Below are positions 11,046 through 23,685 of a stretch of 38,587 nucleotides of DNA, piece by piece (within the stretch, counting starts at the first letter, position 1; every line of letters starts with the position of its first letter). This DNA is from a virus. Location of the stretch: the IMG/VR virus record IMGVR_UViG_3300035130_000107, positions 1-38,587 of that record. The stretch is one strand, 5' to 3'. The notes beneath the pieces are model-generated. The model was not told the origin of the DNA. It saw nothing but the letters and a program-made list of their open reading frames with translations, and made no database searches. Both the position numbers and the translations under genes were made by a program.

Positions 11046-11237
11046 TTAATTTTTAACATAATCTAACATTCTCGATTGGTTGAAAAATATTTTCGCCTCG
11101 CCCTGTGGCTTAAAAAATGGTCGGACTTGCCAAACTTTCGGTTGTAACCTTTCAGTTCCCCGGTCATTCACACGCTCAAATAATGTCGTGACAAAATAGT
11201 TCCCCATCCTTATTGTTCTTTTATCTGCTATTATCAT
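11046..11237 (-). CDS. First gene of the minus operon; paralogue of 2919-3140
   Basis: 63 residues. It shares the GN..T.L, ND.G.ERL, W.VR..F.PQ and A..FF.Q..DY pattern with the 2919-3140 product. Start ATG 11237 follows TAGGAGGAGAAA. The ribosome site and first codons are overlapped by the leaderless ORF at 11221-11262, so initiation may depend on that leader. Function unknown; being promoter-proximal, it is probably made early and abundantly. Confidence 0.75.
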   Translation of the reverse strand: MIIADKRTIRMGNYFVTTLFERVNDRGTERLQPKVWQVRPFFKPQGEAKIFFNQSRMLDYVKN

Positions 11238-11262
11238 TTTCTCCTCCTATTTTTATTTTCAT
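11221..11262 (-). CDS. Leaderless 13-residue leader peptide of the minus operon
   Basis: ATG at 11262, exactly 34 bases from the first base of the -35 and at the predicted transcription start. It reads MKIKIGGENDNSR and stops 14 bases inside the next gene; the GGA GGA codons are that gene's ribosome site. The same arrangement occurs at 12501 and 23632. Ribosomes on this leader would cover and then release the downstream start, so it is likely a coupling or attenuation device. Confidence 0.5.
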   Translation of the reverse strand: MKIKIGGENDNSR

Positions 11263-11268
11263 ATTAAC

Positions 11269-11296
11269 ATTATATATTCTTTTTTGAAAAAGTCAA
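11269..11296 (-). promoter_or_regulatory. Promoter of the minus-strand operon
   Basis: On the minus strand TTGACT (11296-11291), 16-base spacer, perfect TATAAT (11274-11269). The context ACCTCTTGACTTTTTCA is shared over 17 bases with the promoter at 12468. It drives a run of about 20 genes down to the hairpin at 3552 or beyond. It is divergent from the plus-strand promoter at 11388, with 91 bases between the two -35 elements. Confidence 0.85.
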
Positions 11297-11387
11297 GAGG
11301 TAAAATTTTATTTTTTTATTATAAATATATAAGTTACTATACATCAATAAATTACAAGAAATAAATTTGCCATAAAAAATTAAAGGG

Positions 11388-11415
11388 TTGACTTTTTTTA
11401 AAATTTTATTATAAT
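11388..11415 (+). promoter_or_regulatory. Promoter of the plus-strand replication region
   Basis: TTGACT (11388-11393), 16-base spacer, perfect TATAAT (11410-11415). The predicted +1 falls at 11422, on the ATG of the zinc-finger gene. AAAGGG precedes the -35, as in the 652 promoter. With the divergent promoter at 11269-11296 it makes an early control region between the two transcription directions. Confidence 0.85.
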
Positions 11416-11421
11416 TATACC

Positions 11422-11592
11422 ATGATAAAAATAAATTTATTAAACAGAATAAAATCCCCAGAAGAAAAAAGGCGATGTTCGTCATGCAGGAAAATGAAAT
11501 TTGAAAGTGAATTTCATTTAAGGCAAAATTATTGTAAGGAATGTAATAAAAAATATCATCGTGAGTATATGCAAAAGAAAAAAGAGAAATAA
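11422..11592 (+). CDS. Leaderless zinc-finger mini-protein
   Basis: 56 residues read from the sequence. It has a CSSCRKMK knuckle at about 19-26 and a CKECNKKYHREYMQ knuckle at about 42-55, a treble-clef or HNH-like zinc finger pattern common in small phage proteins. The ATG coincides with the predicted transcription start and there is no ribosome site, so translation should be leaderless. As first gene of the plus-strand early transcript it may be a regulator. Confidence 0.7.
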   Translation: MIKINLLNRIKSPEEKRRCSSCRKMKFESEFHLRQNYCKECNKKYHREYMQKKKEK

Positions 11593-11625
11593 ACCCGCGG
11601 GCAAACGGAGGTTGTATTTGAGAAA

Positions 11626-12054
11626 ATGAGTTACGATACTTTTAAAGAACAAGAAGATAAATTTTTGGAGGATTTTTATTTTTCTATTGTAAAAGCGAAC
11701 CAAAAAAGATATGAAGAATATGAATCATTAACACCAGAAGAAAAAGGGAAAATGGATGTATGGGTAGATTCATTAGGACAAATTAATTTTAAATGTATTC
11801 CTAAACAAACCCAAAAGGAGGGAAGTATGGCACATTTAGATGGAGCTACTACACAAGAGTTCCTAAATGCATACCCAGCACAATTTCTTGGGGATGTATA
11901 TCGAAAGGTAGTTATAAAAAAAGTACATAACGGTTGGATAATAACAATCGGATGTGCGACATTCGTCGAGACCGACTGGAAGAAAGTTTGCAATGCACTC
12001 AAGGAATATTGGGATGATCCTGTGAAAGCCGAGAAGAAATATTACAAAAAATAG
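11626..12054 (+). CDS. Hypothetical protein, 142 residues
   Basis: Acidic-basic helical N-terminus (YDTFKEQEDKFLEDFYFSIV), then a C-terminal part from about residue 90 reading RKVVIKKVHNGWIITIGC and ending in EALKEY-like helix KVCNALKEYW. The latter resembles small phage domains of unknown function built from a beta-hairpin and a helix. A GGAGG lies 14 bases before the ATG, a loose spacing. Role unknown. Confidence 0.6.
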   Translation: MSYDTFKEQEDKFLEDFYFSIVKANQKRYEEYESLTPEEKGKMDVWVDSLGQINFKCIPKQTQKEGSMAHLDGATTQEFLNAYPAQFLGDVYRKVVIKKVHNGWIITIGCATFVETDWKKVCNALKEYWDDPVKAEKKYYKK

Positions 12055-22182: not shown

Positions 22183-22519
22183 AAATAGAGTAAAATTAAT
22201 CAAAAATGGAACCGAAATAAATAATTTTTCTATTATAGGACAATTTGACAGGAAATTACATAAGGATTTTGACGAAGAATATTCCATGGAATCAAACAAT
22301 ATAAAAATCAGATTGAGTTATTTTTTAATAGGTTTTTTATTAATTATATGTTGTATATTTTGGAAATGGGATTTTATTAAAAACCTCAATCTGTTTAAGA
22401 GCATCTGGAAAAATACTGCGACAAAAACGATCTACGACGAAAATTACAATGATTCAATTGGAGATAACCGAATTAAAGTATATTATAATGGCGAACAATA
22501 TTATATACCATTATATTAA
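22166..22519 (+). CDS. Membrane protein ending in an NGxQYYIPLY motif
   Basis: 117 residues with one membrane helix at about 51-67 (SYFLIGFLLIICCIFWKW). The last 16 residues, RIKVYYNGEQYYIPLY, are nearly identical to the end of the virion-region protein at 31851-33218, and 41 of 48 bases match at DNA level. The motif is similar to a C-terminal strand seen in phage fibre proteins. No ribosome site upstream; translation probably depends on the overlapping gene. Function unknown. Confidence 0.6.
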   Translation: MKKITKNRVKLIKNGTEINNFSIIGQFDRKLHKDFDEEYSMESNNIKIRLSYFLIGFLLIICCIFWKWDFIKNLNLFKSIWKNTATKTIYDENYNDSIGDNRIKVYYNGEQYYIPLY

Positions 22520-22603
22520 AGTGGTGTTGGATTTATGTATTTTAAAGAATTCATAGGATATTTGGAAGATAAACTTAATAAACTTTCATACGCGGAGGTG
22601 AAA

Positions 22604-22822
22604 ATGGTTTTTAAATGTAAGGACAATGAAGAAGTAGAACCAGTAGAAGTTAGCATAAGTCAAGATGGCAAGGATGTAGATATTCTTTTGGATGGTGTAA
22701 GAGTTGCTTGTTTTAAGGGGGATGAGAGTAAGCTTGTTTCATTGTATCTGAGATGTGAGGACATGACGAAATTAAAAGCCAAAGGGGTAGAATTAGACGG
22801 AGATGTAATAGCAATAGGATAA
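22604..22822 (+). CDS. Hypothetical protein, 72 residues
   Basis: Start ATG 22604 is preferred because CGGAGGTGAAA precedes it; the in-frame ATG at 22535 would add 23 residues but has no good site. All-beta, acidic (EVEPVEVSISQDGKDVDILL) with no recognised family. Ends one base before the next ATG. Confidence 0.55.
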   Translation: MVFKCKDNEEVEPVEVSISQDGKDVDILLDGVRVACFKGDESKLVSLYLRCEDMTKLKAKGVELDGDVIAIG

Positions 22823-23359
22823 ATGGGGCAATCTCGATATTATAAAAAACGGAATAAGAAGATCATACAAGATTATAGGGAATTACACAAGAATAAATCT
22901 CGCAATCAAGAAACGATAGACATTGAATTTGCCCTCGCAAAGAAATATGGTGTCAGCACCAATAGAATACATGAAATTTTAAAACGTGAAAGAAATCCTG
23001 GGATATATAAAGAGCTAAAAGAGAACAAAGAAAGAAATTCCGATGAAATACCCTTAAAACTGGAATTATGGCAAATATTAGGTACGCGCCATACGATGCA
23101 CATCCCTATGGATGCTGGCATCTATTTTCTTATAAGTCAAGGTGAGATAGTTTATATTGGCGAAAGTGCTAACATATTTAGACGGATAGCTACACACAGT
23201 GATGATAAAATATTTGATAGTGTTACTTGGCAACCACTCCCCAATTTAAAGAAATCCCTTCGCCGGAAATTAGAAAGAGAATATATTAAACAATATAAAC
23301 CTAAATATAATATGCTTAGCAAAGAAAGGATAATATATGGATTTAACCGAAAGAAATAA
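22823..23359 (+). CDS. GIY-YIG endonuclease with N-terminal DNA-binding part
   Basis: 178 residues. The nuclease domain at about 98-170 has AGIYFLISQGEIVYIGESAN, the GIY and YIG strands, an Arg in FRRIATH and the catalytic Glu in LEREYIKQYKPKYN. The N-terminal 75 residues contain a helix-turn-helix-like segment (FALAKKYGVSTNRIHEIL) for target binding. Typical of phage homing or freestanding endonucleases. Start ATG 22823 directly follows the upstream stop. Confidence 0.85.
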   Translation: MGQSRYYKKRNKKIIQDYRELHKNKSRNQETIDIEFALAKKYGVSTNRIHEILKRERNPGIYKELKENKERNSDEIPLKLELWQILGTRHTMHIPMDAGIYFLISQGEIVYIGESANIFRRIATHSDDKIFDSVTWQPLPNLKKSLRRKLEREYIKQYKPKYNMLSKERIIYGFNRKK

Positions 23360-23534
23360 ATGGATAGAAAAACGGTATAAGGAACTTAAACAAACCAACA
23401 CCGAAATATACAATAATCAAATTTTTCAACAAATATCGGAGGAATTAAACAAAGAATTTCCACTCTTATGGATAAATTGGCAAACTGTTCGCTTTATTTG
23501 TAAGAAATATGGTTACTATAAGAACAACAAATAA
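23337..23534 (+). CDS. Small helical protein, HTH-like
   Basis: 65 residues overlapping the endonuclease end by 23 bases. It reads MDLTERNKWIEKRYKEL and ends WQTVRFICKKYGYYKNNK, similar in style to the N-terminal helix-turn-helix of the GIY-YIG protein. Ribosome site AAAGGA upstream. Last gene before the late promoter. Confidence 0.5.
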   Translation: MDLTERNKWIEKRYKELKQTNTEIYNNQIFQQISEELNKEFPLLWINWQTVRFICKKYGYYKNNK

Positions 23535-23597
23535 TTGATTAATTAAAATTAAAGTAATAGTCTAACATTTCACATTTTCTTAACAATCTCTTAACTA

Positions 23598-23625
23598 TTG
23601 ACAACTATTTAATAATAGTTATTAA
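23598..23625 (+). promoter_or_regulatory. Promoter of the packaging and virion genes
   Basis: TTGACA (23598-23603), 16-base spacer, TATTAA (23620-23625). ATG follows at 23632, 34 bases from the first base of the -35, as in the other promoters. The spacer contains ACTATT-TA-AATAGT-type dyad symmetry (ACTATTTAATAATAGT), a possible operator. It lies in the only sizeable gap before the terminase genes. Confidence 0.7.
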
Positions 23626-23631
23626 TTAGTT

Positions 23632-23685
23632 ATGATTAATTTTCTTAATCTAACTAAATTATCCCAAGAGGTGGCAAGTGGTTAA
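23632..23685 (+). CDS. Leaderless 17-residue leader peptide before terS
   Basis: MINFLNLTKLSQEVASG, starting at the predicted transcription start and stopping eight bases inside the terminase small subunit gene. The GAG-GTG codons contain that gene's ribosome site. Same layout as 11221-11262 and 12501-12623. Confidence 0.45.
   Translation: MINFLNLTKLSQEVASG

What the first reader, a model, noticed from the sequence alone, without database searches (positions are those of the whole stretch)
11221..23685. Shared promoter design with a start codon at +1 and short leader ORFs that cover the next ribosome site
Five promoters have TTGACT/A, a 16-base spacer, a TATAAT-like -10 and an ATG or GTG 33-34 bases from the first base of the -35: 652 (GTG 686), 11388 (ATG 11422), 11296 minus (ATG 11262), 12468 (ATG 12501), 23598 (ATG 23632). 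That puts the start codon on the predicted first transcribed base. In three cases (11262, 12501, 23632) the leaderless ORF is a 13-40 residue peptide that reads through the Shine-Dalgarno of the first real gene and stops 8-14 bases inside it, while all other genes use normal strong ribosome sites. This looks like a phage-wide scheme: leaderless initiation by 70S ribosomes, with translation of the leader gating the first gene. It could respond to the state of host ribosomes during infection. Five-fold recurrence of the spacing makes chance unlikely.
Basis: partly seen in the sequence, partly recalled or inferred. Interest (0 to 1): 0.85.

Follow-up and report, generated by a model that had tools for sequence, protein, structure and literature searches.

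The report
Leaderless phage genes and a pseudoknot
In an uncultivated phage, four strong promoters and one weaker one place a start codon on the predicted first base of the messenger; two of these are ordinary leaderless genes, and one of the other three messengers has a first base locked into an unusual RNA pseudoknot, which argues against the proposed shared peptide-leader switch.

Summary
All five promoters have a 16-base spacer and a start codon 33-34 bases from the first -35 base. The window has exactly four TTGACTTTTT sites, and all four have it (about 6e-6 by composition).

Two cases (GTG 686, ATG 11422) lack any Shine-Dalgarno and are best read as ordinary leaderless genes. The same design recurs in IMG/VR contigs.

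The other three are SD-led mRNAs with a predicted 5'-terminal AUG, a class described in E. coli (Beck et al. 2016). Their short overlapping ORFs are close to chance expectation, and such uAUGs are not enriched in 114 promoters of this type.

The first ten transcribed bases (AUGGUGGAUA) pair perfectly with 12574-12583. A 16-bp stem (12534-12549/12584-12599) lies directly against that helix. The resulting pseudoknot places the RNA's 5' end at the nick of a 26-bp stack just upstream of the Shine-Dalgarno. It beats 1000 shuffles and ranks first in 2.06 Mb. It matches no Rfam family.

I read it as a cis-regulatory leader of the early replication operon. It would hide the 5' AUG rather than present it. 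No relatives were found, so there is no covariation evidence.

The parts
652..679 (+). promoter TTGACT-16-TAAATT for leaderless metallophosphoesterase
   Evidence: GTG 686 is 6 nt after the -10
686..1561 (+). predicted leaderless gene, Calcineurin-like phosphoesterase, GTG start, no SD
   Evidence: Pfam PF00149 1.6e-5, phrog_7339 2.3e-20; anti-SD duplex +0.6 kcal/mol vs median -8.3; in-frame TAA at 674-676 limits the start
11269..11296 (-). promoter TTGACT-16-TATAAT of the leftward operon (shares CCTCTTGACTTTTTCA with 12468)
11221..11262 (-). 13-codon 5'-terminal uORF (ATG at predicted +1) over the SD of the 11237 gene; UTR 25 nt
   Evidence: chance of read-through 0.62
11388..11415 (+). promoter TTGACT-16-TATAAT for leaderless gene 11422
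11422..11592 (+). predicted leaderless gene, 56 aa Cys-rich protein (endonuclease VII / Lar-like N-terminal similarity)
   Evidence: PHROG matches 1e-5; no SD, +1.8 kcal/mol
12468..12495 (+). promoter TTGACT-16-TATATT of the early replication operon
12501..12510 (+). P1 5' strand AUGGUGGAUA, first 10 nt of the predicted transcript, contains the 5' AUG
   Evidence: 10-bp perfect pairing with 12574-12583
12534..12549 (+). P2 5' strand ACAAUAAAUGCCAGGG
   Evidence: 16 bp incl. 2 G-U with 12584-12599
12574..12583 (+). P1 3' strand UAUCCACCAU
12584..12599 (+). P2 3' strand CCCUGGCGUUUGUUGU, contiguous with P1'; its CCCU can also pair with the SD
12501..12623 (+). 40-codon ORF from the predicted +1 AUG, running through pseudoknot and SD
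   Evidence: read-through chance 0.11
12602..12608 (+). Shine-Dalgarno AGGGAGG of gene 12613
   Evidence: -11.8 kcal/mol
12613..12777 (+). first gene after the pseudoknot, 54 aa putative membrane protein; HNH nuclease and replication initiator follow
23598..23625 (+). promoter TTGACA-16-TATTAA before the terminase operon, inside AACTA/TAGTT repeats
23632..23685 (+). 17-codon 5'-terminal uORF over the SD of terminase small subunit gene 23678
   Evidence: read-through chance 0.41; RNA not unusually structured

Best explanation
The five sites are not one scheme. (1) 652/686 and 11388/11422 are ordinary leaderless genes: sigma70-type promoters whose transcription start is the start codon, with no ribosome site (shown by sequence; the 5' ends are inferred). 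(2) 11262 and 23632 are SD-led mRNAs whose predicted first bases happen to be, or are kept as, AUG. At most they act like E. coli 5'-uAUG mRNAs, by drawing ribosomes to the end of a short UTR (inferred). (3) 12501 is a structured leader. The first ten bases of the transcript pair with 12574-12583. The next 16 bases after that (12584-12599) pair with 12534-12549. The two helices abut, giving a pseudoknot with the 5' end at the nick of a 26-bp stack, which ends two bases before the Shine-Dalgarno of the replication operon (shown as sequence complementarity). Most likely it is a cis-regulatory element that shields the 5' end from decay and sets access to the SD, because the same CCCUGG strand can pair either with P2 or with the SD (inferred). 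The AUG at +1 there is held by the P1 helix and would be hidden, not used, once the RNA is folded (inferred).
For: No SD at 686 and 11422 (+0.6, +1.8 kcal/mol against a median of -8.3 for 85 ORFs). First T of the -10 lies 11-12 bp upstream of the start, as for leaderless genes in PMC3160421. In IMG/VR, ATGs behind TTGACTTTTT-N-TATAAT peak 6-7 nt after the -10 and there mostly open long ORFs. In an unbiased set of 114 such promoters, long ORFs start at offsets 5-6 in five cases, while short uAUGs are not enriched. Pseudoknot: 10 bp perfect plus 16 bp with two G-U and no mismatch, score 60 against a maximum of 47.5 in 1000 dinucleotide shuffles; best of 3848 tiles of the window; best of its topology in 2,058,227 bases on both strands, with P1 starting at the predicted +1. 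Composite duplex -45.9 kcal/mol. The two G-U pairs would be A-C mismatches on the other strand, which favours an RNA of the + strand. Blocking 12501-12550 leaves the SD almost fully paired with the P2' strand. RppH and RNase E prefer single-stranded 5' ends (PMC3997798).
Against: No 5' end has been mapped. No close relative exists in the collections searched, so no covariation supports the pseudoknot. The pseudoknot was found by looking at one locus after the fact. The SD is partly paired in most modelled states, so the on/off direction is not settled. The 40-codon ORF is mildly longer than chance (0.11). All four TTGACTTTTT promoters having a start codon at +1 is unlikely by chance, and this explanation treats the uAUG ones as partly coincidental or structural.
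Confidence: 0.6

Rival explanations
1. One reading: 70S ribosomes start at the 5' AUG of all leaders, and translation of the short ORF through the SD gates the next gene in response to host ribosome state.
For: 5' AUG at predicted +1 in all three leaders. 5'-uAUGs can bind 70S and change expression of the next gene in E. coli (ptrB, rcnR, iscR, mngR; PMC4965119). The 40-codon ORF crosses the pseudoknot and the SD, and modelled ribosome cover of 12501-12550 pairs the SD with P2'.
Against: Read-through is near chance for two leaders (0.62, 0.41). uAUGs are not enriched in 114 like promoters. The 12501 AUG is buried in P1 (-13.8 kcal/mol alone, -45.9 in the stack). Peptides of 13 and 17 codons show no recognisable signal.
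Confidence: 0.13
2. 5'-AUG as ribosome recruitment (standby) site without peptide function, as proposed for ptrB, acting at least at 11262.
For: UTR 25 nt with 5' AUG then a strong SD, against 26 nt in ptrB. Four of four TTGACTTTTT promoters have a start codon at +1.
Against: No experiment; does not fit the folded 12501 leader; no general enrichment.
Confidence: 0.2
3. The pseudoknot strands are DNA sites (operator or replication origin repeats) and not an RNA structure.
For: They lie 0.9 kb before a replication initiator gene; the P1 arms are a perfect inverted repeat.
Against: P1 arms are 63 bases apart, unusual for an operator; P1' and P2' are exactly contiguous and P1 starts at +1; the two departures in P2 are G-U pairs.
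Confidence: 0.15
4. Chance: AT-rich sequence, start codons at +1 and the pairing are coincidences.
For: Two of the -10 boxes are weak; uORFs are unremarkable.
Against: 5.5e-6 for the four promoters; 0 of 1000 shuffles for the pseudoknot.
Confidence: 0.05

Closest known systems
TA-led (leaderless) bacterial genes, Zheng et al. 2011 (PMC3160421); lambda cI
   Same: -10 box with its first T about 12 bp upstream of the start codon, no SD, promoter and start fused (686, 11422).
   Different: Here in an uncultivated phage, one with a GTG start, which is inefficient in E. coli but used in actinobacteria (PMC9031893).
E. coli 5'-uAUG mRNAs (ptrB, rcnR, iscR, mngR), Beck, Fleming and Janssen 2016 (PMC4965119)
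   Same: AUG at the 5' end of an SD-led mRNA; short overlapping uORF; 25-nt UTR at 11262 against 26 nt in ptrB.
   Different: 5' ends are only predicted here; three in one phage; one of them lies in a pseudoknot.
T4 gene 32 translational operator (PMC535899)
   Same: Phage leader pseudoknot just 5' of the SD of a replication-related operon.
   Different: T4's is about 28 nt, followed by a >40-nt unstructured stretch with UUAAA/UAAA repeats and bound by the gene product gp32. Here it spans 99 nt, includes the transcript's 5' end, has no such repeats, and the next gene is a small membrane protein.
5'-structured stable mRNAs (RppH/RNase E protection, reviewed in PMC3997798)
   Same: Base-paired 5' terminus expected to slow 5'-end-dependent decay.
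   Different: Pairing by a pseudoknot with the end at a helix nick rather than a plain 5' hairpin.

Membership tests
Leaderless genes (TA-led) | -10 box (TANNNT-like) about 10-12 bp upstream of the start codon | tested here: met
   12 bp at 686 and 11422; matches PMC3160421. 652's box TAAATT fits TANNNT.
Leaderless genes (TA-led) | no Shine-Dalgarno before the gene | tested here: met
   686 and 11422: +0.6 and +1.8 kcal/mol. For 11237, 12613 and 23678 the opposite: SD present (-10.2, -11.8, -7.1).
Leaderless genes (TA-led) | transcript 5' end at the start codon | not testable with these tools
   needs 5'-end mapping
5'-uAUG SD-led mRNAs (ptrB type) | AUG at the 5' end of an SD-led mRNA | tested here: met
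   met for predicted ends 11262, 12501, 23632; real ends not mapped
5'-uAUG SD-led mRNAs (ptrB type) | 70S binding at the uAUG, effect on the downstream gene | not testable with these tools
   needs toeprints and reporters
5'-uAUG SD-led mRNAs (ptrB type) | enrichment over chance in like promoters (supporting, not defining) | tested here: not met
   3 short uAUG ORFs at offsets 5-7 in 114 promoters, about 4.5 expected; in this window, however, all three SD-led promoters found have one
T4 gene 32-type operator | pseudoknot 5' of the SD | tested here: met
T4 gene 32-type operator | >40-nt unstructured stretch with UUAAA/UAAA repeats between pseudoknot and start | tested here: not met
   only 13 nt, UUAGGGAGGCUAU, between 12599 and 12613
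Rfam riboswitches and RNA families | match at the family gathering score | tested here: not met
   none in the window; only sub-threshold matches with lax search

The most novel reading that the evidence does not exclude
12501-12612 is a new kind of regulatory leader in which the transcript's own 5'-terminal AUG is one strand of a pseudoknot: folded, the 5' end is locked and the SD set free; if a 70S ribosome catches the AUG before P1' is made, it translates a 40-codon ORF, opens the pseudoknot and lets CCCUGG pair with the SD. That would be a kinetic switch reading the supply of free 70S ribosomes.
Probability: 0.1. Interest if true: 0.75.

Novelty: new variant of a known kind. Interest (0 to 1): 0.42.

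Why it matters
Leaderless phage genes behind TTGACTTTTT/TATAAT promoters appear to be widespread in IMG/VR and are easily mis-called, because gene finders look for an SD. The pseudoknot whose first strand is the transcript's first ten bases is a distinct, testable RNA element: it could protect a phage mRNA from 5'-end-dependent decay and control a replication operon. It also shows why a 5' AUG should be checked for structure before leaderless translation is claimed.

Tried and rejected
Close relatives for conservation tests: none in phages by megablast, in IMG/VR by terminase (only 26-34% identity), replication initiator, capsid, helicase or phosphoesterase, or by distant blastn of the leader in phages and plasmids (chance-level). 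The 17-mer TATCCACCATCCCTGGC hits in IMG/VR lack the P1 partner strand ATGGTGGATA and are unrelated.

Host by the glycosyltransferase gene: the better matches (about 37-51%) spread across many candidate phyla, so the host remains unknown.

HDV-like ribozyme considered from memory: P1' and P2' are contiguous, with no room for the catalytic J4/2 cytosine, so rejected. tRNA-like shape: ARAGORN finds none in the window. Rfam: none.

12059 (TTGACTTTTC) as a sixth member: its ATG lies 29 bases from the -35 and its -10 is poor; the Dam gene has an SD (-10.0 for the GTG 12070 start), so rejected. The other TTGAC[AT] sites with a start codon at 33/34 (44, 15386, 16452, 16810, 34878) have no -10 box.
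Full report
Setting. The window is a whole IMG/VR virus record of 38,587 bp, of unknown host, 34% G+C, with no close relative in the collections searched. Genes run leftward at 2.5-11.2 kb and otherwise rightward. 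The five promoters sit before a phosphoesterase gene (652), in the divergent gap (11296 minus, 11388), before the early replication operon (12468) and before the terminase genes (23598).

Observation. All five have a 16-base spacer and a start codon 33-34 bases from the first -35 base. A fair test uses a set not chosen for start codons: the window holds exactly four TTGACTTTTT sites, and all four have ATG or GTG at 33/34. The random rate is 4.85% per site, so about 5.5e-6 for four. With the rate seen in other phages (12 of 114 promoters with ATG or GTG at offsets 5-8) it is about 1e-4. Two subclasses share sequence: CCTCTTGACTTTTTCA at 11296 minus and 12468, and GGGTTGACTTTTT at 652 and 11388.

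Leaderless genes. Genes of this phage have strong ribosome sites (median duplex -8.3 kcal/mol), but 686 and 11422 have none (+0.6 and +1.8). An in-frame TAA at 674-676 and the domain match from residue 6 leave no room for another usual start at 686. The first T of the -10 lies 12 bp upstream, the signature of leaderless genes in PMC3160421. In IMG/VR, ATGs after TTGACTTTTT-N-TATAAT peak at 6-7 nt, and the ORFs opened there are mostly long. This is a known kind with many members.

5' AUGs on SD-led mRNAs. 11262, 12501 and 23632 open ORFs of 13, 40 and 17 codons that end just inside the next gene. Given the UTR lengths, reading to the gene without a stop has chance 0.62, 0.11 and 0.41. Among 114 phage promoters of this type, short ORFs with ATG at offsets 5-7 number three, with about 4.5 expected. 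Beck et al. (PMC4965119) described this arrangement in E. coli, including ptrB, where a 5' AUG in a 26-nt UTR is needed for expression though its peptide is not. So function is possible, but neither a scheme nor a peptide role is shown.

The pseudoknot. In the 12501 leader, AUGGUGGAUA (12501-12510) is perfectly complementary to 12574-12583, and ACAAUAAAUGCCAGGG (12534-12549) pairs over 16 bp, two of them G-U, with 12584-12599. The 3' strands are contiguous, so the helices can stack into 26 bp with the RNA's 5' end at the nick. Loops of 23 and 24 nt are long enough to span it (inference). The summed pair score of 60 was reached by none of 1000 shuffles (maximum 47.5) and is the best of 3848 tiles of the window. 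In 2.06 Mb of fetched sequence, both strands, it is also the best of this topology and the only high scorer anchored on a near-consensus promoter's +1. That P1 begins exactly at the promoter-predicted +1 supports both the start site and the RNA.

How it may work. The composite duplex is worth -45.9 kcal/mol. A paired 5' end should resist RppH and RNase E (PMC3997798), if the host has such enzymes. The CCCUGG of P2' can pair with P2 or with the SD region (12600-12606). When 12501-12550 is blocked, as by a ribosome, the SD is almost fully paired; in other states it is partly open. I therefore favour a cis-regulatory leader of the replication operon, with stabilisation as the firmer part and the SD switch as the weaker part. 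Leaderless initiation at 12501 would have to happen before P1' is transcribed.

Comparison. The T4 gene 32 operator (PMC535899) is the closest functional precedent; its UUAAA repeats and unstructured stretch are absent here, so this is not a member. No Rfam family matches.

Limits. No 5' ends, no relatives, no covariation. The pseudoknot was found after the fact at one locus, though its rank was then tested against the whole window and 2 Mb.

Noticed in passing
window 23593-23632: The terminase-operon promoter lies in a set of repeats AACTA..AACTA..TAGTT..TAGTT spanning -35 to +1, like operator half-sites of a regulator of late genes.
   Followed up: partly
L002 9250-9325 and L003 5467-5542: Identical intergenic sequence in two IMG/VR contigs with a pseudoknot of the same topology (12 and 9 bp, contiguous 3' strands), followed by a terminator-like hairpin; not at a recognised promoter.
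   Followed up: partly
window 26571-29168: The 865-aa portal-like protein appears to hold an in-frame HNH nuclease-like segment (CQICGKTNGKIYAHH...CPSCHNLIHANN), read by eye from the translation.
   Followed up: no
window 22166-22519 and 31851-33218: Two otherwise different proteins end in nearly the same sequence, RIKVYYNGxQYYIPLY.
   Followed up: no
window 17954-20332: A cassette of glycosyltransferase, membrane glycosyltransferase-like and FkbM-like methyltransferase genes inside the early operon; the first resembles genes of many candidate phyla.
   Followed up: partly
window 11046-11237 minus and 2919-3140 minus: The first gene of the leftward operon and a gene near its end look like paralogues (IDRKSNQIGNWLLTRLYVRKNDHG vs ADKRTIRMGNYFVTTLFERVNDRG).
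   Followed up: no
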